In this document: piece by piece, positions 1 through 13,561 of the stretch
Layout of the letters: the number at the start of each line of letters is the position of its first letter
Position numbering within the stretch: the first letter of the stretch is position 1
NCBI GenBank assembly: GCA_002179805.1
Contig: NAVB01000245.1
Location: forward strand, 1-13,561
Length of the DNA: 13,561 nucleotides
Direction: 5' to 3'
Source of the DNA: Acanthamoeba lenticulata
Lineage: Eukaryota > Discosea > Longamoebia > Acanthamoebidae
Notes under the pieces: model-generated
Told to the model about the DNA's origin: nothing
Databases searched by the model: none
What the model saw: the letters and a program-made list of their open reading frames with translations, nothing else
Program-made: the position numbers and the translations under genes

Positions 1-794
1 ACGACTACAGGTGGCGCGATGTGGCCGAGCCGCTCCTCCTCGAGTCCTTTGACCGCAACGTCCGATGGTTGCTCCAACGGGGCCCCGAGCTCGGTACGAA
101 CGCCAAGCGCGCGTGTGTGTGCGGTCGCAGTGCACTGACCGTGGGGCGCGCACACGCACAACACACACGCACATGCACACGCACAAACGTAGGCAACTTG
201 CGGAACGAACGCACGCGAGTCGACCGCCACCGCCTGCTGGCCACGTTCGACGCGACGATCGTGTCCAAGCGCTTCTTCCTCTTCCACGCCTACTTCCTCA
301 ACCACGTCGCCAGGCCTGACGGTAGCGATGTCTTTGTTGTTGGCGTCGTTGTTGTTGACACATGTAGCTAACAACAACAACTCGACATTGCCAACAGGCC
401 GGTCAGTCGCAGAGGTGCATCGCGTGCTGGACGAGTGCCGTGGCCGACCGCCCCCGCGCCTCAAGGCCGCCGTGCAGCGCAACCTCAAGGAGCTGTCTAG
501 TGTCGGTGCGTCGCCTCTTCGGAAGAATGTAGGTCGTGCAAAGGAAGGGAGGGCTCACCTTTGACGTCTTTTCTTGCAACTCGAATCGAATGGAATGGAA
601 TGGCAGACAACTGGGTGGACTTTTTCAAGGGCGTGGACGTGCCGCTCCCGGCGCCCGAGCTGCTGACGCGATGGCTGCGGCAGGCGGTGGTCAACTCGTC
701 GCGCAAACGCTACCACAACCCGCGCAACTACTCGCACTACGCGCGCGGCAGGGACCAGCTCGGAGAACAACGTTGGCGATGTTTTACAGAATAA
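1..794 (+). CDS. 3' part of an unrecognised intron-containing gene
   Basis: The gene enters from the left edge, so its start is missing. Four exons join in one frame: 3-93, 193-321, 398-505 and 607-794. The three introns (94-192, 322-397, 506-606) all have GT-AG ends and phase 1. The second exon could instead begin at 220, because both acceptors keep the frame. The product segment contains WLLQRGPEL, then KRFFLFHAYFLNHVARPDG, then a basic stretch with RPPPRLKAAVQRNLKEL, and a tail with DNWVDFFKG and KRYHNPRNYSHYARG. I recognise no domain. The residues around FFLFHAYFL are hydrophobic, but the segment is too short to call a membrane helix with confidence. Codon use and splice style match the genes downstream, so this looks like a real host gene and not decay. 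The function is unknown. Confidence 0.6.
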
Positions 795-795
795 A
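790..795 (+). terminator. AATAAA poly(A) signal overlapping a stop codon
   Basis: The hexamer AATAAA contains the TAA stop (792-794) of the first gene. The AT-rich run just downstream fits a 3' end. Use of this hexamer in this organism is inferred. Confidence 0.4.
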
Positions 796-815
796 TTCCC
801 AATGTGTATAATATT

Positions 816-834
816 TATATATATATATATATAT
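816..834. repeat. (TA)n microsatellite
   Basis: A simple TA dinucleotide run sits between the 3' end of the first gene and the ankyrin cluster, inside a wider AT-rich patch at about 795-866. It stands out against GC-rich flanks. No function is implied beyond a possible breakage-prone boundary. Confidence 0.85.
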
Positions 835-876
835 TTTTAAACCGCAAATATTAACGTATACATTACGGTGGGGGTT

Positions 877-981
877 CGCGCCAACGGCTGCCCCCGCACA
901 CAACGAGGTGCCGAGTACGACCAGGCGGCCAGGCCCGGCTTCGTGCCTGTGCCCAAGTGGCTGCACGCCCAACGCTGTCCG
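877..981 (+). pseudogene. Degenerate ankyrin-type repeat remnant
   Basis: The plus strand reads RANGCPRTQRGAEYDQAAR followed by PVPKWLHAQRCP. This is recognisably the 27-residue repeat found on the opposite strand just to the right (RANGCPWD...AA..GHL.VLQW). The WD after the first CP is lost, and the cysteine-to-cysteine spacing is 29 residues instead of 27. There is no start codon and no continuing repeat, and the reading runs into antisense of the minus-strand gene. It looks like the stranded end of another repeat gene left by a rearrangement. It could instead be a chance resemblance, but the RANGCP and KWLHAQ.CP blocks in order make that unlikely. Confidence 0.55.
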
Positions 982-993
982 GCAAAGCCACGC

Positions 994-1854
994 TCAGGCC
1001 TCATGCATGTTGGCGTGCACCCATTCTCGGATGTGTGGGTGGTCTGATGCCTCACTGGCAGCGAAACAGGCACAAGCATCCCATGGGCAGCCGTTGGCTC
1101 GCGCCCACTGGAGCACCTCCAGGTGGCCGCCCTCGGCCGCCCCGACGCCAGTCTCTTCGTCCCACGGGCAGCCATTGGCATGCGCCCACTGGAGCACCTC
1201 CAGGTGGCCGCCCTTGGCCGCCCCGGCGCAACTCTCTTCGTTCCACGGGTAGCCGTTGGCACGCGCCCACTGGAGCACCTCCAGGTGGCCGCTCTCTGCC
1301 GCGGCCATGCAGGTCGACATGCCCCTTATGCAGCCGTTGGCATGCATCCACCGGAGAATGGCCAGGTGGCCTCTGCTGGCAGCCTGCCAGGTGGTCCACA
1401 CATCCCACGGGCAGCCGTTGGCACGCGCCCACTGGAGCGCGGCCAAGTGGCCGCCTTCGGCCGCTCCGGCGCAAGTGCCATCGTCCCACGGGCAGCCGTT
1501 GGCACGTGCCCACTGGAGCACGGTCAGGTGTCCTCTCTTGGCCGCCTGCCTGCAGGTCCATCCGTCCCACGGGCAGCCGTTGGCACGCGCCCACTGGAGC
1601 ACGGCCAGGTGTCCACCCTTGGCCGCATGCATGCACGTCCACGTGTCCCACGGGCAGCCGTTGGCGCGCGCCCATTGCAGCGTGGAAAGCCAGCCCTTGC
1701 GTGCCACTTGAAACGCATAGTAGGTCGCGTGGGGCAACTCGGTGGTCGTGGTGTGGGGCAGCAGGGGGTGAAGTAGGTTGTAGAAGGCGTGGTTCCACGT
1801 GCGGCACCGTTGGATCGAGAAGGACCACTCCTCGCGCCCCGACAGAATCTGGGC
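994..1854 (-). CDS. Ankyrin-type (27-residue) repeat protein, possibly F-box-like, lacking a clear start
   Basis: The minus-strand frame begins around QILSGREEWSFSIQRCRTW and continues through HAFYNLLHPLLPH, then eight tandem 27-residue repeats, then a tail ending REWVHANMHEA and a stop at 994-996. The repeat consensus is LQWARANGCPWD..TC..AA.GGHL.V. Divergent ankyrin repeats of this form are abundant in amoebae and in large DNA viruses of amoebae. The W-x-C-R-x-W-x-x-F pattern before the repeats resembles the end of an F-box, which would make this a ubiquitin-ligase adaptor; that is an inference. No ATG precedes the repeats except one at 2019, in sequence that is antisense to plus-strand repeats. 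The 5' end is therefore probably truncated or lies in an unseen exon. One repeat is off-consensus, with GCIRG in place of GCPWD. The block could be a live gene or a recent pseudogene. Confidence 0.6.
   Translation of the reverse strand, partial: AQILSGREEWSFSIQRCRTWNHAFYNLLHPLLPHTTTTELPHATYYAFQVARKGWLSTLQWARANGCPWDTWTCMHAAKGGHLAVLQWARANGCPWDGWTCRQAAKRGHLTVLQWARANGCPWDDGTCAGAAEGGHLAALQWARANGCPWDVWTTWQAASRGHLAILRWMHANGCIRGMSTCMAAAESGHLEVLQWARANGYPWNEESCAGAAKGGHLEVLQWAHANGCPWDEETGVGAAEGGHLEVLQWARANGCPWDACACFAASEASDHPHIREWVHANMHEA
1081..1690 (-). repeat. Eight exact-register 81-bp tandem repeats
   Basis: The plus-strand anchor (c/t)agcc(g/a)ttgg occurs at 1088, 1169, 1250, 1331, 1412, 1493, 1574 and 1655, always exactly 81 bp apart with no indels. 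Each unit encodes one 27-residue repeat on the minus strand. The near-identical core RANGCPWD and variable residues after it suggest homogenisation by unequal exchange or gene conversion with purifying selection on frame. This is a coding tandem repeat, not a CRISPR array. Confidence 0.9.
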
Positions 1855-2053
1855 CTGGCTACGCACACCAGGGCCCAACTTGTGGACTCCGCGCGCGTGC
1901 GCGGCCGCCGGCGCCGGCGGGCATCTGGACGTGCTCAAGTGGCTACGCGAGAAGGGCTGTCCCTGGAGCTGGACCACGACCGCCAAGGCCGCCGAGTACG
2001 GCCACCTCGACCTTCTCAAGTGGGCTTACGACAATGACTGCCCCATGGACTGA
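1850..2053 (+). pseudogene. Plus-strand ankyrin-repeat fragment, 5' half of an interrupted gene
   Basis: The plus strand reads WAWLRTPGPNLWTPRACAAA, then GGHLDVLKWLREKGCPW, then AAEYGHLDLLKW, and ends NDCPMD at a TGA (2051-2053). These are about two and a half repeats of the 27-residue type, with the exact cysteine spacing of 27 between GCPW and DCPM. There is no ATG; the open frame upstream is antisense to the minus-strand gene, so the N-terminus is lost. The stop codon is formed at the junction with the 322-bp insertion. The same reading resumes at 2376, so this is the left half of a split gene. Confidence 0.6.
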
Positions 2054-2221
2054 TAGAGAAGTATCTGGGGATCTGGACGCCTAGAGGGACAGAGAGGCGC
2101 AGAGCTGGTGAACAGGGCAATGTATTGTGAAAGAGAGAGAGAAAAGGAATACAATCAGAGGGGAGGATGAACATCTAAATAGTCGTCACCAGAGTGGCGA
2201 CTTAGGAAGGGAAGGAGAAGG

Positions 2222-2258
2222 AGAGACAACAGATCAGTAGTTGATCTGTTGTGTCTCT
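2222..2258. repeat. Hairpin 1 within the insertion
   Basis: The left arm ACAACAGATCA (2226-2236) pairs perfectly with TGATCTGTTGT (2242-2252) across a 5-nt loop. The stem extends outward with AGAG/CTCT if a 2-nt bulge is allowed. No T-run follows. It may be structural DNA of a mobile element or a folded RNA. Confidence 0.7.
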
Positions 2259-2320
2259 GACAGTGTCTGCAGCGAAGGCTACCAGGTGGCCGCGAGTGCC
2301 ACAATCTGTCAGACGCGGGA

Positions 2321-2359
2321 CGCGGCTTAATTAGGAAGCTGCCGCTTCCTAATACCGCG
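2321..2359. repeat. Hairpin 2 within the insertion
   Basis: ATTAGGAAGC (2330-2339) and GCTTCCTAAT (2344-2353) form a perfect 10-bp stem with a TGCC loop. A further 5-bp stem, CGCGG (2321-2325) with CCGCG (2355-2359), closes around an asymmetric internal loop. It lies just inside the right boundary of the insertion, 15 bases before the second direct-repeat copy. Confidence 0.75.
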
Positions 2360-2375
2360 AGCGCCCCTGTCTGTC

Positions 2376-2700
2376 ATGGACTGGGACGAATGCGCCCAGC
2401 GCGCGGCCGGCGGCGGCCATCGAGCCGTCCTCGAGTGGCTGCTCGCGCGGGGCAGGTGCACGATGGACGAGCAGCTTAGCGCAGAGGCCGCGCGGGGCGG
2501 GCAGTTGGCCTTGCTTCAGTGGCTGAGGGCCCAGGGCTGTCCGTGGGACGAGCAAACGTGCACCAGGGCCGCGAGAGGCGGCCACTTGGACGTGCTCCAG
2601 TGGGCGCGCGCCAACGGCTGCCCGTGGGACCAGCAGGTCTGCTGCCAGGCGGCCACGATTGGCCGCCACGAGGCATGAGCAAGGCTGCCAGTGGGACGAG
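2376..2700 (+). pseudogene. Ankyrin-repeat fragment, 3' half of the interrupted gene, frameshifted
   Basis: An ATG opens a frame reading MDWDECAQRAAGGGH, then LQWLRAQGCPWDEQTC, then GGHLDVLQWARANGCPWD, ending at a TGA (2676-2678) after GRHEA. The repeats have the 27-residue spacing of the other fragments. Just after the stop, frame +1 resumes the pattern with QGCQWDEDAA (from 2680). About 14 nt are missing relative to the repeat consensus, which causes the frameshift. Beyond about 2700 no repeat similarity is seen. A 100-residue product from the ATG is formally possible, but the left-side continuity with 1850-2053 and the frameshift favour a decayed gene. Confidence 0.6.
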
Positions 2701-2940
2701 GACGCAGCGAGAGAGCCTTCTTGGGCAGTCAGGTGGACATGAGGCCGCCAACGCTCCGTCGGTTCTGACCTATCGGGTGAACACGGACCCTTGTGGCCAA
2801 CGGGATCAAATCTTACGGAGCAAAGGAAGAAAAACAAAAAACATTTAAATAGAAATTGTAAAAGAAGCCAAAAGCAAAAAGACTTCCTCATCGTCAAGCA
2901 CACTGTCCTCTGGCAGCCACTAGAAGGCGTGGTAACAAGC

Positions 2941-4387
2941 ATGTGGTTCGAGATACTGGTTGTGGTGGTGTCGCTGTGGGTGGTACGGCTGGTGCACCGG
3001 ATGGTCGTGGTGAAGGAGCTCAAGGGCCAAGTCGTCCTCGTCACTGGTGGCGGTTCCGGTATCGGACGCAAGGTGCGCTCCTTGGCCCAACGGCTTGCTC
3101 TTCTGATTTCGTTTTCATTTCAACTGATCCACGATAATCTTTTGATAAATCAATCAACACAGATGAGCTTGTTGCTGGCCAAGAAGGGCTGCAAACTGGT
3201 CCTCTGGGACATCAACACAGACGCTGCGCAGAAAGTTGGTTCGTTCAGGATAATATTTTTTGTAGATGTTTATTTATTTTAATTTTTTAATAATTTATCT
3301 ATTAATTAATCAATGGAAAAACATGTTGCTGACGCACAAGCCTGCACGCATGACAGCGCAAGAGATCAAGGAGGCGGGCGGAGAGGCGTGGGCCTACCAC
3401 TGCAACGTCATGGACAACGAGGCCGTGCGCGAGGTCGCCGTCAGAGTCCAGGCCGAGGCGGGCAAGGTCGACATTCTCATGAACAACGCTGGCATCGTGT
3501 CTGGCAAGTTCATCACCGAGCTCAGGTGCGTCGTCATCGTTGTCATCGTCGTCGTGGTCGAGTTTTTAAAGATGCCGACGTCGTCCTCCGCACGACAGCG
3601 ACGAGCACATCTCGCGAACGATGGGCGTCAACGTGCTGGCGCACTTCTGGACCATCAAGGCCTTCCTCCCGGCCATGATCGACTCTGGCCGCGGCCACAT
3701 CGTCACCATCGGTACCACCATCACCATCATCATCCCCTCGGCCCCTCATCACCATCGCTCATTCGTGTTTGTGTTTGTTTTGGACGCGGCAGCCTCGGCG
3801 GCCGCGATCTCGGCGGCGCCGCGCATGGTCGACTACGTGGCCTCCAAGTTCGCCGTCTACGGCCTCAACGAGAGCCTCCGCCTCGACCTCGCGCGCCGCG
3901 GCGTCAAAGGCGTCCACACCACCGTACGACGATCGCCGTGTGTGTCCGCCTCCAGATGGTGGTGCCTTTTTCTCATTTGTGTGTTGGCGCCGCGCGGACC
4001 TGCAGGCGGTGTGCCCGTACTACATCAACACGGGCATGTTCGACGGTGTGAAGACCAACTTTTTGCTGCCTCTCCTGGAGGAGGACTACGTGGCCGAGCG
4101 TATCGTCGACGCTATTCAGCATAACGATCACCATCTCGTGATGCCCTGGATCGTGAACTTGGTCTTCCTTCTGCGACTCGTCCCGGCGCCCATCATGGAC
4201 TTTGCCGCACACGCGCTTGGCGTGACCAAGGTGCGAGCGCCAACGTAGCGGCTTGATGATACACGGCTTTTTGCTAGGCCTCATCGCTTGCTTTTGTGGG
4301 TACAAACAGACCATGGACGAATTCCAGGGACGAGGCTGGGAGGCCACCGACCCGACGCGGGCCACAGCCGTCAAGAAGGAGCAGTAG
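2941..4387 (+). CDS. Membrane-anchored short-chain dehydrogenase/reductase (SDR16C-like)
   Basis: Seven exons (2941-3072, 3163-3238, 3357-3525, 3599-3711, 3793-3923, 4006-4230, 4310-4387) join in one frame to give 307 residues. A hydrophobic N-terminus (residues 4-16) should anchor it in a membrane, probably ER or lipid droplet. The NAD(P)-binding motif TGGGSGIG is at 35-42 and NNAG at 112-115. The structural Asn is N137, and the catalytic triad is S165, Y178 (YVASK) and K182, with the correct 13-residue Ser-Tyr spacing. A DIN motif follows strand 2 (FWDIN-like, LVLWDIN), which suggests NAD rather than NADP preference. The layout and the tail with TMDEFQGRG match the retinol/17-beta-hydroxysteroid dehydrogenase group (RDH10, HSD17B11, DHRS). 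The substrate cannot be told from sequence. All six introns are GT-AG. The active site is intact, so the enzyme should work. Confidence 0.92.
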
Positions 4388-4664
4388 GTAGCCGCCCGAG
4401 GTCATCGGCTTCAGCAGAGAACGCCCGGAATGCGAAGAATTGTTGGAATGTCATTTTTGCTGTAAAATAAGGCGACATTTCACGATTTTATCGCAGCGGA
4501 GTAAAGTATCCAAGAAAGACAATATTTTGCTTGGTGCGGTTTTACTCACCACAGATCCCAAAATCGTTGTAGTGTTGCGCCTACGCGGTCTTCTCATTTC
4601 CATTCGTTTCATCAGCTCCCCTTCTTCCTCCCTCTCACTCAACTCAATTCAGTGAGGCGTCATC
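4388..4664 (+). promoter_or_regulatory. Intergenic region and pyrimidine-rich leader of the caprin-like gene
   Basis: This 277-bp gap separates two same-strand genes. The last 50 bases before the ATG at 4665 are strongly pyrimidine-rich (ccccttcttcctccctctc at about 4617-4635, then cactcaactcaattc). This may be the initiator or a terminal-oligopyrimidine-like 5' leader, as on translation-related mRNAs. No TATA box is evident close upstream. The transcription start is not known. Confidence 0.35.
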
Positions 4665-6657
4665 ATGTCAGACACCACTGCTGCCCCGTCAAGTGCCGCC
4701 ACTGCGGCTGCCCAGCCAACGACCGCCCCTGCCACGCAGGAGGCGCCTGCTGCTGCCACGAAAGCAGCACCCCGCAAGCGAAAGGAGAAGGCGCCCAAGC
4801 CTGCCGTCGATCAGCAACAGCCCCAGAAGAGCGAGAATGGCGCTCAATCGCCCAGTGCTCCTGTCGCTGGAGACAAGGCTGGCGCTAAGAAGGCTAAGAA
4901 GCCTGCTAAGAAGGGCGGCAAGAAGCCCGCTGCTGCTGTCGCTGCGGAAGAGGAGAAACCCACTGGCAAGGACGCCAAGGACAAGGACGCCAAGGAGAGC
5001 GCTCACCCATTCCTCCGCATGGTCAACTCGAAGCTGCGAGCGAACAAGAAGAAGCTCGAGAAGATCGCTGCCATCGAGGAGAAGCTCGCTGAAGGCAAGG
5101 AAATCAACAACGATCAGCGTGAGGTCCTTAGCCGGAAGCCTGAAATTGAGCGTATCATCGTCGAGCTCGAAGAGTTCAAGAAGGAACTCACTAAGCTCGA
5201 GAGGGCCGAGGCTCAGGCCCACCAAGAGGTTCGTTGATTTCCACTACTGCCACTACCTTTTCGTCTTCACTGCACTCTTTCGTGTGCGTATTAATCTTTT
5301 TTCTTTTCTTTTCTTTTCTTTCCTTAAATCGAAAAGAAACGGCTGCACGAGCTGAAGACCGTCCTCCGCCTGTTCCACATCGTCGGCTACCTCCACTCGA
5401 CTCATGCTTCAGCTGAAGAGACCAAGAACATTTTTGTTGCTCGTGGCCTCAAGTCGTTGGTATTAGACTGCACATTTTACACGAAATGTGTAGTATAATA
5501 ATCAACTAATTGTTTTTGTGCAGGACGTCGATCTCGTCGTTTTGACACACCTGCAGAACGAGGTGTTCGGCCTGGGCGACAACTTTGGTAAGCAGCTCGA
5601 TGCCGGCTTCACGCGCCTCTTGAAGCTGCTCAACGACAGCAAGGAGGAGTTTGCGCCTGGACACAGCTTCCAGTCGCTCCACGCCAAGCTCACTGACTAC
5701 GACACCTACATCCGCAAGGGCAAGTCGCTCGCTCCCTTCTCCACCGACCTGCCCGCCTCTTCTGGAAGCTCTTCCACTGCCTCGACCGCTGCGGCGCCTG
5801 CCCAGCAGGCCGCCTCGGCCCCGGCCGCCCAGCAGCCGGCCGCTGCCTCTGAACCTGCGGTTGCCACGAGTGCGCCTGCCACCGCCGCTCAGCCCGCGGC
5901 TACCGAACAGGCCGCTGCTGTTCAGCCCGCGGCCACCGAGCAGCCCTCTGCTGCCGCTGCTCCCGCCGCCGCTGCTGCGGCGCCAAAGGAGGAGCCTGCT
6001 CAGGCGACGCCCCAGCCGGCCGCGGCCCCCGAAACGACCGAAGCTGCCTCTGGCGCCGCGGCCGTCTCGGCCCCGGCCTCTGAGCCGCAGCAACAGCAAG
6101 CCCAGTCCGAAGGCGCCCAGGAGGCCGCCCGCGGTGGACGCGGCGGTGGTCGCGGTGGTCGCGGCGAGCGTCGCGGTGGCCGTGGCGAGCGTCGCGGTGG
6201 TCGTGGTGGCGGTCGTGGTGGCCGCCGGCCCGAGGGCGCCGCTGCCCCCGCAGAGGGCGCCGCTGCCCCGAGCGCGAACGGCAGCGCTAACCAAGCCTCT
6301 GGAGCTGCCGCAGCTCCTCAAGAGGCTGCCGCCGCTGGCGCTGGCGGCGCGCCACCCCACCGGCCGCGTGGGTCTGGCCGTGGGGGCCGCGGCGGCGGCC
6401 GTGGCCGAGGCGGCTACCGAGGCGGCGACCGTCCGGCTGGCGATCGTCCCGCTGGTGATCGTCCAGCTGGTGATCGTCCCGCTGGCGATCGTCCGGCTGG
6501 TGACCGTCCGGCTGGTGACCGTCCGCCGCGTGGCCGCGGACCGAGGCCGCAGCACGCCGGCCAGGGCCAGCCATCGCCGCAGCAGCGTCGGCCGGCTGCC
6601 CAGCAGCAGCAACAGCAGGCGGCGGCGCCACAGCAGCAGTCTGTGGCCGCGCAGTAA
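4665..6657 (+). CDS. Caprin-like RNA-binding protein with C-terminal RGG boxes
   Basis: Three exons (4665-5228, 5337-5459, 5524-6657) give 606 residues; both introns are phase 0. Residues 1-111 are Ala/Lys-rich and disordered. Residues 112-305 resemble the caprin HR1 homology region: a coiled coil with VNSKLRANKKKLEKI and EEKLAEGKEINNDQREVL, then KRLHELKTVL and a helical part ending with LLNDSKEEF. Animal caprin-1 has the matching order KKLRN, GERLNQDQ and KRLKTVL. Residues 306-431 are an Ala/Pro/Gln linker, followed by RGG boxes at about 432-466 and 509-530, a GDRPA tandem repeat, and a Gln-rich tail. Caprins bind mRNA and join G3BP in stress granules; here a cytoplasmic RNP role is inferred. 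Aromatic residues are almost absent after residue 305, so no G3BP-binding motif of the animal kind is visible. Confidence 0.8.
6424..6528 (+). repeat. 15-bp tandem repeat encoding GDRPA
   Basis: Seven in-frame 15-bp units encode six copies of GDRPA and a final GDRPP. Third codon positions vary (ggc/ggt, gac/gat, ccg/ccc/cca) while the residues are kept, which points to selection on the peptide. The repeat directly follows an RGG/RGGY box and extends the arginine-rich tail. Confidence 0.9.
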
Positions 6658-6704
6658 ACGCGGACCAGAGGAAGGAGGAGAAGAAGTCAGGCTCTTGAGT
6701 TCAT

Positions 6705-6853
6705 GAGAGGAGAGAGAGAGAGAGAGAGTAAAACGCGTCAACTTTTGTACAACAACACATGAACAACCAACTCTTCAACAACAACAACACGTTTTTCTGT
6801 TCCACTCCATGGACAGGACGAGGATGATGATGATGATGAAGAGGATGATGATA
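6705..6853. repeat. GA and GAT microsatellites between convergent genes
   Basis: The 204-bp gap between the caprin-like stop (6657) and the Nudix stop (6862) contains a (GA)n run at about 6705-6728, a CAA-rich patch near 6776-6789 and a (GAT)n run at about 6823-6853. It should hold the overlapping 3' UTRs. No AATAAA hexamer is visible on either strand. Confidence 0.75.
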
Positions 6854-6861
6854 CATCTCCT

Positions 6862-8091
6862 TCAGAGGGCGGCGTCTTGGCGGGAGTAGTAGAGGGGGCT
6901 GCGGCCCGGGGCAAAGGCGAGCGGGAGGGACTCGGCCACGTCGAGCCCGCGATAGCCGTCGGGCCCGGCGCTCTGGCAGGCCAGCTCGATGATCTTCTTG
7001 TAGAGCCCCGTGTAGTAGGGCAGAGCCAGAAACTCGTCGATCTGACCGAACCAAAAGGAGAAGGAGAAGGGAAGAGGGTGAGCTCGTGAAGCCCCTGAGA
7101 GGAGAGCAAGGGAGAGCTTACAGGCATCCACTTGCAGTCTTCGATCTCGCTGTCCTGTTTCTTGATGTCGAAGCTCAGCGGTTCCAGTCGGCACACAAAG
7201 TACAAGTCGGACCGCCCAAAGAAGCTTTTGGTGTTCTCACGGATGCACAGGAGCGACATGAACCGCTGCAACGTCGCCCGCCCCGCCATGAGCGTGAGAA
7301 GGAAGAAGGGATGGCCGATGATGATGATGAGGATCTCGCGTACAGTGTCGATGCCGGTCTCCTCCTTGACCTCGCGCACGACGCCCTCCAGTATCTCCTC
7401 GCGCGGCTCCAGCATGCCGCCCGGGAACTGAACGCGCGCACGTGTGTGTTACATGATCATGTGTCGTGTCCCGCGCGCGTGTGTGTTCGCAGCGCACACG
7501 AACCTTCCAGATCTTGGTGATGGGGCCGTTGCGCTCCTTGACGACGAGGATCTCGCGCGTGCGGTCGTTGATCACCACCCCGCCCACCTTCATGCATGAA
7601 GGTGATGAAGATGAAGAAGAAGAAGAAGAAGAAGATGAGCAACTCCAACAAGAAGAAGAAGAAGAGGAAGAGGAAGGAAGAGACGGACGCCGACGTAGTG
7701 GCCGGCAAAGGCCGGGAGGGTCGAGGGCGAGGCGGGCAGCCAGAAGGTGAGCATGATGTAGGCCCGGTCGGCGTGGTGGAAGACGAAGCCCAGCTCGATG
7801 GCGATGGAGACGAGGTGGGCCTTGTCCGTTGGGATCTTGAGCCACACCCCACGCTTCTCCTCCTCGCGCCACCGGACGAGCGAGGCTTTGTTGAAGAAGA
7901 AGACGATGGTGATGTCCCAACGCGACAGCAGATGCGATGAATGAATGCAACAAGAAGAATGGAAATGAAGACGAGGCCGCACCTTCGAGCATTTGGCCAA
8001 AGACGACGAGGTCGTTGGGCAGAGCTTCAGGGTCGACGATGACGCCGCGGTAGTGGTCGTCTTGTGCTTTGAGAATGCCAGCAGCTTCCAT
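6862..8091 (-). CDS. Nudix hydrolase of the NUDT6/plant NUDX type
   Basis: Six exons on the minus strand (8091-7983, 7885-7689, 7587-7504, 7427-7344, 7265-7122, 7041-6862) give 265 residues. The N-terminal part (about 1-100) has the pre-Nudix domain typical of this subfamily: RGVIVD, then W-R-E-E-E-K-R-G-V-W-L-K-I-P and GFVFHHAD. The Nudix fold starts at VGGVVINDR. The box G134-x5-E140-x7-R148-E149-V150-x-E152-E153-x-G155-I156 is complete and sits in one exon, so metal binding and pyrophosphatase activity should be intact. It is followed by SFFGRSDLYFVCRLEPLSFDI and E-I-E-D-C-K-W-M-P. Relatives cleave ADP-ribose, NADH or CoA-type substrates; the actual substrate is unknown. There is no obvious targeting signal. 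The ATG at 8091 is the first in frame before the conserved part, although the frame stays open upstream. Confidence 0.92.
7597..7680. repeat. GAA-rich tract in Nudix intron 2
   Basis: A long purine run (GAA/GAG repeats broken once at about 7637-7651) fills most of the intron 7688-7588. Read on the coding (minus) strand it is a CTT-rich polypyrimidine tract just upstream of the 3' splice site, so it may have grown from that tract. It is the longest such tract in the window. Confidence 0.85.
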
Positions 8092-8294
8092 TCCTTTCAA
8101 GACTTGAAATGGAACGCGAAGAGAAGAAATGGTGCGTTGGGATTGCGCGAGATCCCTTCTGGATAGATGTGAAACTTTACTTTCTCCCTTTGAAAACGTC
8201 TTACTTACATGTTGTCACCTCTCGACTGGTGCCGATACCGAAATGGGGGGTAGCCAATTTACATCCATCGTTCGTTGACCGCTCAGTCGCTTCC

Positions 8295-8900
8295 TTAGTA
8301 GTAGGAGCAGCACTGATTGGTCTTCTTCGCCTGCCACAAAAACTGCTTGCTCGATGCGCTGAGATCTTCGCTTCGCTCGATGATGCTGTCGAGCTTCTCT
8401 CCTCGATTGAGCAGATCTTCCATCGAATGGTGCAGGATCTCCTTCACCTCCTCCAACTCCTTCTGAATACGCGAAATGTTGTCTGCCTCGTCGGGCTTCT
8501 GGTACTTGGTGAGCAGTTCCTTGATCGAGGGGGTTGCCATCTGCGTATCGGCGCTGGCGCTAACCCACTTGTCCCCATTGGCCGATCGAAACTCGGAAAG
8601 GGCAAGGGCGCAGAGGGAGAGGGCCACCCGCGTTGGGTAGGACTTGTCGGTGACGACCGCCGCCGCCAGGTTCTCCACGCTCACATACGAATGGCAGACG
8701 TAGTCCCCTTCATCGATGACGTTCTTGTCGCCCGGTCGTGTGCGCTGCACGACTTGCCTGATGAAGAAGGTCACCAGCTCTTGCACGGTGCCGCGTTTGA
8801 AGAAACCGAACGAGCTGAGCTCGTACTCGGTGCAGATGAGAGTGGGCGCGGTTTCAGGGCCCTTGTGCTTGAGGATGGCGATGGCAAAGAGTTGCGGCAT
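8295..8900 (-). CDS. YKT6: YKT6-type R-SNARE (longin SNARE)
   Basis: This is an intronless 201-residue protein, matching the usual YKT6 length of about 198. The longin domain covers about residues 1-130, with YELSSFGFFKRGTVQE, DYVCHSYV and DKSYPTRVA matching family landmarks. The SNARE motif spans about 138-192, with the zero-layer Arg at R166 (EDLLNRGEKLD). The C-terminus is KKTNQCCSYY. YKT6 proteins have a CC pair, one Cys palmitoylated and the other prenylated, and no transmembrane helix; they act in ER-Golgi, vacuole and autophagosome fusion. Here the pair is kept (C197, C198), but the last residues SYY are not a usual prenylation signal. The start at 8900 gives the family N-terminus (MPQLFAIAIL); upstream in-frame sequence is Pro/Ser-rich and looks like leader. 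Confidence 0.95.
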   Translation of the reverse strand: MPQLFAIAILKHKGPETAPTLICTEYELSSFGFFKRGTVQELVTFFIRQVVQRTRPGDKNVIDEGDYVCHSYVSVENLAAAVVTDKSYPTRVALSLCALALSEFRSANGDKWVSASADTQMATPSIKELLTKYQKPDEADNISRIQKELEEVKEILHHSMEDLLNRGEKLDSIIERSEDLSASSKQFLWQAKKTNQCCSYY

Positions 8901-9230
8901 TAAGTGGATAGGATTGAAAAGAAGGAAAGTTGCGAACGATCGCCGAGAAGGAGAGGGTGGTGTAACGGCTGGTTGGAATTGATTGAAAAGAGATGGTGGG
9001 GATGTAAATTCTTCTTGTCTTTCCAGACACGTAAGCACGAGAAGAACTTAAACGGGAACTCCACGAAAGCAGTTCAAGGAATGCAACGAGACACCACAAT
9101 TCAAATTCCATGCATGCCTTTCCTGCTTGGCGTTCCTCTGCCAGGTCAACGAACGGGCGTAACCGCCAAGCCCAACAACGTAAGCAACTTGTCACTGACT
9201 AGCTCCGTGACCAACTAAGGGAAGACGCTC
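8901..9230. promoter_or_regulatory. Divergent intergenic region between YKT6 and the membrane-protein gene
   Basis: These 330 bases separate the start codons of two divergent genes and must hold both promoters and 5' leaders. I see open frames on both strands, but none with family resemblance, and no clear TATA box or repeat. Short palindromes such as TGCATGC near 9110 are not convincing sites. Confidence 0.4.
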
Positions 9231-10407
9231 ATGAGCGCGATGGAGCTGAAGGAAAAGGGCGAATTGGGTGAGTCAGGCCAACCTGGACAGAGCAAGATCG
9301 TTGAGCGGGAGGAGGTCACCTTCGAGTATGCCCTGAATAAGTTTAAAGAGGCAGCTCTCAACTCGCTCACCAACCGCTACATGCTTGCCAACATAGTCTA
9401 CCTTGGGTACACCATTGGCATACTCTTTATTGGTACGGCTTTGTTGTTCTCCTTCATCCCTCTGCTCGTGTTGCCACTAACCTGTGAACCTGCCACAGAC
9501 TTTGGTACAGAGGACTATGAGACATCAGAGATCAACAGGCTCTTCATAGGTGAGAACTCCTCTTGTGCTCAGCTCTGTTTAGGGTCATACTGACCAAGAT
9601 AGCCTGTGCACAGGGTTCAACTTTGTCCATCTGGTGTCGGCCGTCTTGTACGTGTGGGCCTGGCGAGGGTTCCCGTGGCTGCATATCATCATGATCCCTG
9701 AGTTCTTCAACATCACGGAGGCGGTCCTCTACATCGCGTCATCGTTCTACTACGACGATCAGGACACTGAAAGCGACACGCCCTACCTCGACAGCGCTAC
9801 ACAACTGTGCCACAACCTCGAGACCGCGGCCGCGGTCATCTCTTGTGTTGCTTCGTTTGGCTGGGTGGCCACTTGGTGGATCACCTACCTTCGTGCCCCG
9901 GGCCGAGGTTCGATTGCCTTCTTCTTCATCTGTTTCATCTGCTCACCTTCTTCGTCGCGAAGGCTACACGGTGGATGACCCTGATGTGATCGCTTGGAAC
10001 TGCACGTTGGCCGCGTCGCTCGTCTACGTCACCTACAATGGCAAAGTGCAGGACGATCCCGTCATCTACGCCACTGAGTACATGTACCGCAACGCTGACA
10101 TCGTCTACTTCATCGGTATCCTGCCTCCTCCTTGATTGTTCATGTGCCTGCTTCCTCTTCCTCTCGCTTATCATGTCGGACTCGTGCAGGCGCTGTCTTC
10201 TACATCCTGGCGGCAATGCGTGACGACGGGTGGTGGTGGTTCATGCCGCTCGCGGGCCAGTTCAAGCTGCAGATCGAGGGCCCCGGTGGCGATGGCCACG
10301 ATGTGGTCCCCGACAAACGCACCATCCGCGGCTTCCTCTACAACTGCGGACTCCCGCTCTGGCCCTCGTCTTGGACTCTGGGCGGCTGGTACGAGCGCCT
10401 CTGCTGA
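9231..10407 (+). CDS. Multi-pass membrane protein of unknown family (about six helices)
   Basis: Five exons (9231-9432, 9499-9549, 9614-9907, 9963-10115, 10190-10407) give 305 residues. All four introns are GT-AG and phase 1. A charged N-terminus (1-48, likely cytosolic) precedes hydrophobic segments at about 50-67, 84-101, 106-131, 155-177, 191-207 and 228-243, so about six helices. The linker between helices 3 and 4 is acidic (YYDDQDTESD). Helix 4 is Trp-rich (FGWVATWWITYL), and the sequence after helix 6 has DDGWWWFMPLAGQFKLQ. The C-terminal 50 residues are soluble and end WTLGGWYERLC. There is no signal peptide; the first helix would act as an anchor. I do not recognise the family and assign no function. 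The continuous frame over five exons and the spacing of hydrophobic segments support a real gene. A second ATG at 9240 is an alternative start. Confidence 0.82.
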
Positions 10408-10443
10408 GGCTACAACAAATGCAAAATTAACTCAAAAATACAA

Positions 10444-10474
10444 AATAAAAACAAAATAAAATTCCAAAAATAAA
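10444..10474 (+). terminator. Cluster of three AATAAA poly(A) signals
   Basis: AATAAA occurs at 10444-10449, 10455-10460 and 10469-10474, starting 37 bases after the membrane-protein stop. The 75-bp gap to the convergent TBCC stop is A-rich. No matching hexamer is seen on the minus strand, so the signals should serve the plus-strand gene. Confidence 0.55.
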
Positions 10475-10482
10475 AGAAATCG

Positions 10483-11585
10483 TTATGAAGGCGTAGAAGA
10501 AGACGGTGGGTAGGTGGCGGGAGGTCGGCGCTCAGCCTCGGGGATGAGCGACCAATGCGCGGGACCGCTGGCGATCTGGGAGGGTCGGTCAAAGTCCTCC
10601 ACGGTGCGCCACATATCGTTGGTGAGGGTTGCTTCCATGTCCGCCCGACGCAGGTGCGTCTCGAGCTCCGCATAGGCAAAGTCGTAGGGCGCGAAGCGCA
10701 CGCGAGCGCAGCGCTCGATGATGGGCCGACTGCGGACGCCCACGTAGAAGTCGGACTCGGTTGTGTCGTGGATGCGCAGTTGGCGGGCAACGAGGGCGAA
10801 GGTGCAGCCCTTGCACTCGTAGAGGAGGGTCGAGCCGGCCACGGGGCCCGCGAAGACGCGGCAGTTGACGAGGTTGTGCGCTCGGAGGGCGCGCAGCGGA
10901 GCGCAGATGTAAACTTGGCAGTCGGTCAGGTTCGACAGAGACAGATCGGTCGCCATGTCATCCTCATCGCCTTCTTCCTTGCGCTCCCACACAAGCGTCT
11001 GGCCCTGCAGGTCCTTGAAGCCGGCCTCCTCTGTGGTGGATACCGCGGTAGCGGGGACGGACGGCGCGGCCACAACCGGCGGCGATGTTGTTGTGGACTG
11101 TGATGGCGCAATAGCCGTTGGCTTGGCAGCTGGTCGCGAGCGGAACGCAAACTTCTTCTTTTGACCGCTGAGCTCGCGCTGCTTGGTCAGCTCCTCGGTG
11201 AGGCTGTTGATGGTCTGCCAGTGGTGAAAGTGAGTAACAACAAGCGTTGTGGAGATGAGTTTGGCGTGACGCGAACCGTCTGGGCAGTTCGAAGGTCATA
11301 GGCAGGGAGAAAATGTGTGGACTTGTTGAGCAGTTGTTGAGCAGCCTGGAGGCATCCCTCGATCTGCTTCAACCGGGCGGCAGGGTCGATTGTGGCATTA
11401 TCTTGGAGCTGGGCAGCCTCGTTCTTGATTACGTTGAAATCAGCCCAGAATTGATTAAGTTGTGATTTACCGCCCAACTTGCTGGCTGCCAGCTCCTCAG
11501 CTGCAGCTCGTTTTGCCTTTTGTTGCTGTTCTTGTGCAGCAAAGTGGAGGTCGAGTCGGCTCTTGTTTGCTTGATTGACGTCCAT
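10483..11585 (-). CDS. TBCC: Tubulin-binding cofactor C (tubulin-folding cofactor C)
   Basis: Two exons (11585-11277 and 11214-10483) give 346 residues. The N-terminal part (about 1-120) is helical and charged, including QLNQFWADFNVIKNEAAQL and AYDLRTAQ, as in the spectrin-like tubulin-binding domain. A Ser/Thr/Pro-rich linker (about 120-175) precedes the C-terminal beta-helix TBCC domain: LSLSNLTDCQVYI, then Q248-L-R250-I-H252, FYVGVRSRPIIERC and RVRFAPYDFAY. The QxRxH motif supplies the arginine finger (R250) that makes TBCC a GTPase-activating protein for beta-tubulin in the TBCD/TBCE complex. It acts in the cytosol, releasing folded alpha/beta-tubulin dimers. All key residues are present. 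RP2 and TBCCD1 share the domain, but the N-terminal helical domain points to TBCC. The 62-nt intron is GT-AG, phase 0. Confidence 0.95.
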
Positions 11586-11697
11586 GTTGCTCTTGTTTGC
11601 GGTTTCCCGCGCTTTTGCCCGAGGAAAAGGTCAAGAAACAGTCATGAAAAGCTGGAAAGGCTGTTGAATAAATCGGCTGTGCAGACGACGCGTCGAA
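11586..11697. promoter_or_regulatory. Short head-to-head region between TBCC and the Nup88-like gene
   Basis: Only 112 bases separate the TBCC ATG from the first in-frame ATG of the Nup88-like gene, so a shared bidirectional promoter is likely. The gap would be longer if a later ATG is used. No recognisable promoter motif is seen. Confidence 0.4.
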
Positions 11698-13561
11698 ATG
11701 GAACACAAAGACACGTCTGGTACGTACATAGAGCATTGGCTTTGGGTTGCGGCACTTATGAAGCGGGTGCCCTTACGAGCCTTAAATCGCGATTTTAATC
11801 GAATGGGGGTGCGGACCATGATAGGAGGCACGGCGTTTCTTCGTGCACTGGAGAGCCACGCACTGTGGCGGGAGGTGCAACAGAAGCAATCTGCCAGCGC
11901 AGCGGGCCGACAGGAGCTTCGCCCAGTGCGTAACGTGCTCGCGGCTGACTCCTTCCAGCAGCTCTTTTTCTACAACGCCGAAGACAAAGATGGCCGCATC
12001 AGCGTCATCAACCTGAAGCGAGTCAAACCAGCTGACACAACTGCGGAGGCCTCGTACCAGGTCCGCTCCTCCGCCCTTCATTTCCTTCATCGCTCCCTCA
12101 TCGCTCAGAGCGTCGCCTCTGTCTGCAGACTATACGCTGCGTGCCAGCCATCGAGTTCCCCATTCGCGAGCTCATCTTCAACGAGAAATCGAATCTGCTG
12201 TGTGCTGTGGGTCACCATCGGTGCGCCATCATCGACATCTCAGACTACACACGACGCGAGTTTTTCAAGAGGGACGCTGCCCGCTCTCGTGACGCTGTCG
12301 ACTGCCGGTATGCACCCACCAGGCTGTCTTGGTCCTCCATCTTGCGTAGAATGTATTGTCGATTAATCGCTCTACGTTTTTACGGCCTTGTGCTTCTCAA
12401 CAGGACATTCCTCGTGGGCAGCTTCTTCCACAACACCAATCCAGGCCTCCGCGTGGTCAAGGCCGCGTGGCACCCGCTGAGCGACAACCACCTCGCCATC
12501 CTCGCGTCGGACAACACCCTCCGGCTGTACGACCTCGCCGCCGACGTCGACGAGCCCGAGCAGCTTTTGCCCCTTCGGGCACTCTACGCTGACTATGAAG
12601 ATGACGACGAAGATGAAGAAGACGGGCTGGCTGACTTCTTGGCGATCGACTTCACATTCGGGACCTCGCGGCTCAGCTGGGATTGCTTCACCATCTACTT
12701 CCTCACCGAGGACGGGGAAATCTACGGGCTGAGCCCCGTGGTGCCCTACAACGCGCTGCTGGCCGACAGCGTCCTCACACGGCTCAAGCAAAAGGTGATG
12801 GCGCACATGGACGACATTCACCAGCGGCATCAGAAGCAGCACAAGGGCGGCCGGGGCCAACAGGAAACCGAGTCAGCGGCCCAGCGCCGCTACCAGCTGC
12901 AGATCAGCTGGCTCAACGAGGGTACGGCGGCGGGCTTGGCCGCCGCGGATGCCTTTCGCGCGCGTGCGCCATGAAGCTCATTGGCGGATCCTGCGTGCAG
13001 TGCGGGGACAGACGGTGCTGCGGGGCGGCGACGACAACGGCGACACACATGCGGCCAATGGCGGCGCCGGCGGTCGTGGCAAGCGCAAGGACCGGTCGGT
13101 GCGACGCGCGGACGAGGGCTGGATCCTTACCCGACGGCCGAGCAGCCGTTACCTGGCGTTGCCCGCCCTCCAGGGCCCGCTCGAGCCCTCGGCCGGCTTC
13201 GAGCCGCCCAAGCGCGGCCAGCTGGTGCGCCTTGCCCCGAAAGAAACTCTGCCCACCAATCGAGTTCTCACATAACCATTCCCTGGGAATGTGGGGCTCG
13301 CGCGTGTGCTTGCAGCCTGTGGGCATACTTAGCGTTCCATCATCGCCCACGGTGCTCGTACGGTGCTTCTTGAATGGCCTTGTGGACATCTTCATCGCCT
13401 TTGACGAACTCGAGCCGGACTGGCCTCCTCGCCCAGGTTTCTGACTTCTTTAGCTCCATCTTGTCGTGTCGTGGCCAACCGTTTAACGACCTTGTTGTGC
13501 GTGAAACCAGACGAAGACGTGCCCGAGAGCGGCGCCGTCGCGACGCTGACTCTGTTCGAGC
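11698..13561 (+). CDS. Nup88-like nucleoporin, 5' part (runs off the window)
   Basis: Six exons are seen (11698-12060, 12129-12307, 12404-12921, 13001-13224, 13316-13436, 13511 to the edge), all GT-AG and in one frame. The product resembles the N-terminal beta-propeller of Nup88/Nup82: RVVKAAWHPLSDNHLAILA, then SDNTLRLYDL, AIDFTFGTSRLSWDCFTIY, FLTEDGEIYGL, and NGLVDIFIAFDELEPDW. Human Nup88 has the same order (AAWYP, LLTSDNVIRIYSL, FDFGPL, LYENGETF, ESGMLYHCVVLEGEEED). Nup88 sits on the cytoplasmic face of the nuclear pore with Nup214 and Nup62. An acidic loop (YEDDDEDEED) is inserted between blades, and a basic Gly-rich loop follows about 80 residues later. The start is uncertain: ATGs at 11698, 11758, 11803 and 11818 are in frame, and conservation begins near FLRALESHALW. 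The fourth exon boundary is the least certain. Confidence 0.82.

What the first reader, a model, noticed from the sequence alone, without database searches (positions are those of the whole stretch)
4665..6657. A caprin-like stress-granule protein in an amoeba
Caprin is known mainly from animals. This protein has the caprin order: basic disordered N-terminus, HR1-like coiled coil (GKEINNDQREVL compared with GERLNQDQ of caprin-1), KRLHELKTVL, a helical block, then RGG boxes. The animal G3BP-binding motif is aromatic, but here the 300 residues after position 305 contain one Tyr and no Phe or Trp. If this is a true homolog, the HR1/RGG core is ancient and the G3BP link is either newer or made in another way.
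Basis: partly seen in the sequence, partly recalled or inferred. Interest (0 to 1): 0.75.

Follow-up and report, generated by a model that had tools for sequence, protein, structure and literature searches.

The report
RGG-box protein with caprin-like layout
This amoeba gene encodes an RGG-box protein laid out like the animal stress-granule protein caprin, but the sequence tests do not show that it is a caprin, and the animal-type contact with the granule protein G3BP is missing on both sides.

Summary
Window 4665-6657 is a three-exon gene for 606 residues: basic disordered N-terminus, charged helical hairpin, helical block, then an Ala/Gln-rich tail with two RGG boxes. A syntenic copy in the same genome supports the gene model. 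Residues 306-606 have one Tyr and no Phe, Trp, Leu, Ile or Met. The caprin reading is only partly supported. No caprin profile hits the protein, and profiles built from it find no caprin among solved structures. The GKEINNDQ hairpin is above chance but scores the same against the eIF2A C-terminus and higher against another ORF of this genome. The helical block aligns with the vertebrate caprin dimer domain better than nearly all controls, but 2-4% of shuffles do as well once the LKTVL stretch is held fixed, and fly caprin shows no similarity. The genome has a clear G3BP, with Tyr and Asn where G3BP1 has the caprin-contacting His-31 and His-62. Most likely a lineage-restricted multivalent RGG protein of mRNPs. 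Caprin descent is possible (about 0.28) but not shown. The full domain could not be folded here.

The parts
4665..5228 (+). Exon 1, residues 1-188: basic disordered N-terminus (1-110) and helical hairpin/coiled coil
   Evidence: Splicing; same boundary in the C211 copy; composition
5025..5174 (+). Hairpin motif, residues 121-170, with GKEINNDQREVL at 144-155
   Evidence: Similar to caprin-1, caprin-2, eIF2A C-terminus and a C307 ORF
5229..5336 (+). Intron 1 (108 nt, GT-AG)
   Evidence: GTTCGT here, GTACGT in the C211 copy
5337..5459 (+). Exon 2, residues 189-229 (KRLHELKTVL...), first helices of the helical block
   Evidence: also present in P0121
5460..5523 (+). Intron 2 (64 nt here, 78 nt in the C211 copy)
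5524..6657 (+). Exon 3, residues 230-606 and stop: rest of the helical block, then low-complexity tail
5524..5727 (+). Rest of the helical block (residues 230-297), aligned with the caprin dimerization domain
   Evidence: Weak end-to-end similarity
6130..6222 (+). RGG box 1 (residues 432-462)
6379..6426 (+). RGG box 2 (residues 515-530)
6424..6513 (+). Six GDRPA repeats (residues 530-559); three in the C211 copy

Best explanation
A protein-coding gene for a lineage-restricted RGG-box protein with a helical core. Shown: three-exon gene with a syntenic second copy, one detectable relative that shares the helical block, basic N-terminus, RGG boxes, and a hairpin motif that also occurs in caprin HR1, the eIF2A C-terminus and another ORF of this genome. 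Inferred: the hairpin and helical block make dimers or contact the translation machinery, while the basic N-terminus and RGG tail bind RNA through many weak contacts, so that the protein is a multivalent mRNP component able to enter condensates. It would work like a caprin in outline, a helical oligomer carrying RGG tails, but would not bind G3BP by the animal caprin motif. Descent from a caprin ancestor is not shown.
For: Gene model. Tail and N-terminus composition, 11 RGG. Helical block conserved in P0121. Hairpin shared with several proteins. No known family profile reaches its cut-off. No relative beyond P0121: none of 1665 candidates at E<=0.001 and 1 of 614 at E<=10.
Against: No RNA-binding, localisation or expression data. 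Dimerization is not modelled. The core differs at only 2 nucleotides between the two copies, synonymous changes included, so its conservation there is not by itself proof of selection. The databases may leave out genomes very near this one (stated), so lineage restriction is uncertain. The pairwise similarity to vertebrate caprin-1 over hairpin plus block is more than the hairpin alone would need.
Confidence: 0.5

Rival explanations
1. A true but very divergent caprin. The HR1 dimer plus RGG tail predates the split of animals and amoebae, and the G3BP contact arose later on the animal side or was lost here.
For: Same order of parts. Whole core against caprin-1 HR1: 112, 0 of 1000 local shuffles reach it; against caprin-2: 93, 0 of 1000. 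Caprin profile gives the core 15.4 bits, best of 2000 local shuffles 9.3, and no background ORF of 1365 among the top 40 rows. hhalign P 9.2e-5, probability 59%. Caprin-1 HR1 searched through the whole genome matches only the two copies of this gene at E<=10 (E 0.22). Helical block end to end against caprin-1+2: reached by 3 and 2 of 3000 shuffles and 0 of 2517 ORF pieces.
Against: No Pfam caprin hit (human caprin-1 gets 142 bits). No caprin found by the amoeba profiles. Caprin-2 HR1 and the caprin-1 dimer domain alone find nothing in the genome. hhalign on the helical block alone: probability 1.4%. Hairpin equally like eIF2A. With LKTVL kept, 133 and 74 of 3000 shuffles reach the score. Fly caprin: no similarity, while fly caprin itself has z 11.6 to the vertebrate profile. 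5 of 20 caprin-invariant columns kept; 3 of the 20 lie outside the alignment.
Confidence: 0.28
2. A nuclear or nucleolar Gly/Arg-rich protein: the Lys/Arg clusters of the N-terminus act as nuclear localisation signals and the RGG boxes bind pre-rRNA or other nuclear RNA.
For: PRKRKEK at residue 36, 20 Lys in residues 1-110, net charge +10. That such clusters act as nuclear signals and that RGG boxes are common in nucleolar proteins is recalled.
Against: No domain of a known nucleolar family reaches its cut-off. No localisation data.
Confidence: 0.15

Closest known systems
Caprin-1 / Caprin-2 / fly Caprin, HR1 domain (PDB 4wbe, 8k9c, 5j97, 6bk4)
   Same: Order of parts: disordered N-terminus, hairpin, helical block with LKTVL, RGG tail (tail order of caprin recalled)
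   Different: No profile match, coil about 10 residues shorter, 5 of 20 invariant columns kept, dimer-core Gln is Phe, no G3BP-binding motif, no similarity to fly caprin
eIF2A C-terminal hairpin (PDB 8dys, residues 551-598)
   Same: Hairpin motif: score 67 with the amoeba hairpin, the same as caprin-1
   Different: No helical block or RGG tail follows in the amoeba-like arrangement; the match in eIF2A lies near the end of the 603-residue chain. The amoeba coil alone did not retrieve eIF2A from the PDB at E<=10
RGG/GAR-box RNA-binding proteins in general
   Same: Two RGG boxes in a low-complexity tail
   Different: The helical core matches no described family

Membership tests
Caprin | Match to the Pfam Caprin-1_dimer (PF18293) profile | tested here: not met
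   No row at E up to 10; human caprin-1 gets 142 bits against a cut-off of 27
Caprin | Match to the Pfam Caprin-1 C-terminal (PF12287) profile | tested here: not met
   No row at E up to 10 for the whole protein
Caprin | HR1 N-lobe hairpin (GERLNQDQ region) | tested here: inconclusive
   Above shuffles (67, z 7.3) but not specific: eIF2A 67, C307 ORF 76
Caprin | Residues invariant in the animal caprin C-lobe | tested here: not met
   5 of 20 columns of alignment A1 kept, 3 of 20 unaligned; Gln of the dimer core is Phe
Caprin | HR1 fold and parallel dimer | tested here: inconclusive
   Only P0121 could be modelled; mean pLDDT 35.9
Caprin | Short motif binding G3BP NTF2 (Phe-372, Leu-378 in caprin-1) | tested here: not met
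   Residues 306-606 contain no Phe, Leu, Ile, Met or Trp; residues 1-110 no Phe, Tyr, Trp, Leu or Ile. This is an animal caprin trait, so its absence does not exclude an older caprin
Caprin | C-terminal RGG boxes | tested here: met
   11 RGG in two boxes
Caprin | RNA binding and stress-granule localisation | not testable with these tools
   Needs experiment
G3BP (partner gene elsewhere in this genome) | NTF2 domain closest to G3BP/Rasputin, followed by an RRM | tested here: met
   Rasputin 6.2e-23, G3BP2 1.1e-22, best NTF2 3.3e-8; Pfam NTF2 2.1e-28, RRM_1 1.5e-15

The most novel reading that the evidence does not exclude
A bona fide amoebozoan caprin in which the HR1 dimer and RGG tail survive while the G3BP contact is absent on both sides: no aromatic/Leu motif in the tail, and Tyr and Asn in place of the caprin-contacting His-31 and His-62 in the amoeba's own G3BP. 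The two stress-granule proteins would then be older than the link between them.
Probability: 0.25. Interest if true: 0.7.

Novelty: new member of a known kind. Interest (0 to 1): 0.35.

Why it matters
[quoted passage not shown] A non-animal caprin would date the HR1/RGG module and show that the G3BP contact is a separate trait. The G3BP result is useful by itself: this genome encodes a G3BP that keeps Val-11, Phe-15 and Phe-33 but not the two histidines of the caprin-specific site, so the amoeba can be used to ask how G3BP granules work without an animal-type caprin contact.

Tried and rejected
PF18293 against the whole genome: 0 matches, but the 14 control genomes were silent too and introns split the gene, so no evidence. 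Homolog search with the core among proteins of about 333-1060 residues: none of 1665 candidates at E<=0.001; shorter query: 1 of 614 at E<=10, P0121. Scans of bacterial/archaeal and viral contigs: 124 and 117 pattern matches, none confirmed. Single core sequence against the PDB: keratin E 1.4, a designed coiled coil 5.3, caprin-2 8.4 on the hairpin. Coil alone: designed coiled coils and keratin, neither caprin nor eIF2A at E<=10. Core profile: three weak chains, no caprin; helical-block profile: none. Pfam best for the core: DUF6247 E 0.027, below its cut-off. Model of P0121 too poor for a fold search, so none was made. Helical block by local alignment only: caprin-1 reached by 1 or 2 of 1000 shuffles, caprin-2 by 42 or 28, fly by 824 or 550, for two gap settings; local profile alignment reached by 6, 31 and 3 of 600 controls, end-to-end by 0 of 600 in each set, replaced by the larger run.

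Papers: searches for caprin with evolution, G3BP and amoeba, with homolog and choanoflagellate (31), with G3BP and Dictyostelium (58), with Acanthamoeba (64; 26 papers, 20 listed, many on the word caprine), for 'caprin family' with phylogen (71), for Acanthamoeba with stress granule (32), and two wider ones: no listed title or abstract start describes a non-animal caprin. I read the abstract, part of the introduction and Results part 1 of 2 of PMC11480233 and passages of PMC10170197; of the other papers only listings.

Full report
Gene. The window is contig C223, bases 1-13561, of a 48.5-Mb assembly in 1825 contigs. That it is an Acanthamoeba-like amoeba is my inference from genome size, intron style and neighbours; no tool named it. 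The frame from ATG 4665 is interrupted by two GT-AG introns and gives 606 residues. A syntenic copy on contig C211 (94.2% over 3598 columns; flanks also match) has the same exon boundaries, with intron 2 of 78 nt against 64 nt. Between the copies residues 1-110 differ at 2 nucleotides (1 amino-acid change), residues 111-306 at 2 (1 change) and the aligned tail at 22 in 282 codons (9 changes); overall dN 0.0085 and dS 0.034. The counts are small, and the core is low in synonymous changes too.

Anatomy. Residues 1-110 have net charge +10 and no Phe, Tyr, Trp, Leu or Ile. Residues 111-303 hold all 10 Phe, 3 of 4 Tyr and 27 Leu. Residues 306-606 have 87 Ala, 50 Gly, 38 Pro, 33 Gln, 32 Arg, 1 Tyr and no Phe, Trp, Leu, Ile or Met; there are 11 RGG tripeptides in two boxes and six GDRPA repeats.

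Is it a caprin: profiles. Pfam lists nothing above its cut-off and no caprin model at E up to 10, while human caprin-1 gets 142 bits. A profile from the two copies plus one relative finds no caprin among 177,635 distinct PDB sequences at E<=10, for the core or the helical block. The single core sequence lists caprin-2 third, E 8.4, on the hairpin.

Is it a caprin: pairwise tests. Caprin-1 HR1 scores 112 (0 of 1000 full and 0 of 1000 local shuffles reach it), caprin-2 93 (0 and 0 of 1000), the fly C-lobe 31 (517 and 589 of 1000 reach it). A five-sequence caprin profile (A1: three vertebrate caprin-1, human caprin-2, fly) gives the core 15.4 bits, above 2000 local shuffles (best 9.3) and above 1365 background ORFs (none in the top 40 rows, which end at 5.6 bits), but the helical block alone 2.3 bits, E 22. 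hhalign gives probability 59%, P 9.2e-5 over hairpin plus LKTVL and probability 1.4% for the block alone, on a different register. In the whole genome caprin-1 HR1 matches only the two copies of this gene at E<=10 (E 0.22, residues 5-65); caprin-2 HR1 and the caprin-1 dimer domain alone match nothing.

What carries the similarity. The strongest part is the hairpin around GKEINNDQ. Caprin-1 HR1 itself weakly hits eIF2A on its own hairpin (E 1.1, residues 9-55). Apart from the two copies, the best genome match of the amoeba coil is an ORF on C307 (E 0.023, 37% identity; three weaker matches follow, E 0.41-0.69). That ORF in turn hits eIF2A (E 0.042, second of four behind a designed coiled coil). 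By eye an ORF just upstream of it looks like a BTB domain, but the 365-residue piece scanned has no Pfam family, so the label is mine. Scored side by side: amoeba with caprin-1 67, caprin-2 59, eIF2A 67, C307 ORF 76; caprin-1 with eIF2A 79; caprin-2 with eIF2A 82. On the other side, the amoeba coil alone did not retrieve eIF2A or caprin from the PDB at E<=10. The hairpin thus recurs in other proteins and cannot alone assign this one to caprin.

The helical block. Aligned end to end to a caprin-1+2 profile, its score is reached by 3 of 3000 full shuffles, 2 of 3000 local shuffles and 0 of 2517 helix-prone ORF pieces (overlapping pieces from 200 kb of this genome); with fly caprin added to the profile, by 4, 6 and 0. 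Keeping that stretch and shuffling the rest, 133 and 74 of 3000 (caprin-1+2) or 126 and 55 of 3000 (all) reach the score. Against fly caprin alone 1808 and 2149 of 3000 shuffles and 527 of 2517 ORF pieces do. Fly caprin against the vertebrate profile has z 11.6. Of 20 columns invariant in A1, 5 are kept, 12 changed and 3 unaligned; the Gln that hydrogen-bonds in the caprin-2 dimer core (Gln-221, Results part 1 of PMC11480233; my column mapping) is Phe. This is weak support, not proof.

Structure. The only relative found is P0121 (208 residues, JGI, 2336-base contig), which I read as exon 2, an unspliced intron and exon 3. Its model has mean pLDDT 35.9. Helices fall in an order compatible with caprin helices 3-7, but nothing follows from such a model.

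The G3BP side. NTF2-family matches in the genome include two near-identical contigs, C601 and C1028 (98.0% identical over 3763 columns). The NTF2 domain is closest to Rasputin and G3BP, with an RRM and an Arg/Gly-rich end read. Against G3BP1, Val-11, Phe-15 and Phe-33 are kept, Phe-124 aligns with Tyr, His-31 with Tyr, and in the same printed alignment His-62 with Asn. His-31 and His-62 form the site used by caprin-1 but not USP10, and alanine at His-31 abolished caprin-1 binding (passages of PMC10170197). With the tail composition, the known animal caprin-G3BP contact is absent on both sides. That fits a caprin that never had it and equally a protein that is not a caprin.

Verdict. A real gene for an RGG protein with a caprin-like layout and no detectable family. 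Dimerization, RNA binding and granule entry are inferred. Caprin descent is possible, about 0.28, and is not claimed as membership because profile, invariant-residue and G3BP-motif tests were not met.

Noticed in passing
L017 (contig C1028) and L018 (contig C601): A G3BP gene (NTF2 + RRM + Arg/Gly-rich end) with Tyr and Asn at the positions of G3BP1 His-31 and His-62.
   Followed up: partly
L042 (contig C307): A 689-residue ORF carries a hairpin like those of eIF2A and caprin (KKKLAQIDNLKDKQAKGAELDDEQ); no Pfam family in the 365-residue piece scanned.
   Followed up: partly
6424-6513: GDRPA repeat number differs between the two copies of the locus: six in the window, three on C211.
   Followed up: no
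817-1803 and 2053-2374: These stretches, with ankyrin-type ORFs around them (994-2025 minus, 2331-2675 plus), are not collinear with the C211 copy: a rearrangement or insertion between copies.
   Followed up: no
8295-8900 (-): Longin/synaptobrevin SNARE, Ykt6-like by my reading, ending NQCCSYY, which differs from the CaaX ending that I recall for Ykt6.
   Followed up: no
7590-8096 (-), 10483-11630 (-), 12036-12974 (+): Neighbouring ORFs with Pfam Nudix_hydro, TBCC and TBCC_N, and Nup88 matches.
   Followed up: no
2943-4387 (+): Probably a short-chain dehydrogenase gene split by introns (TGGGSGIG and YVASK read by eye); two pieces scanned gave no Pfam match.
   Followed up: no
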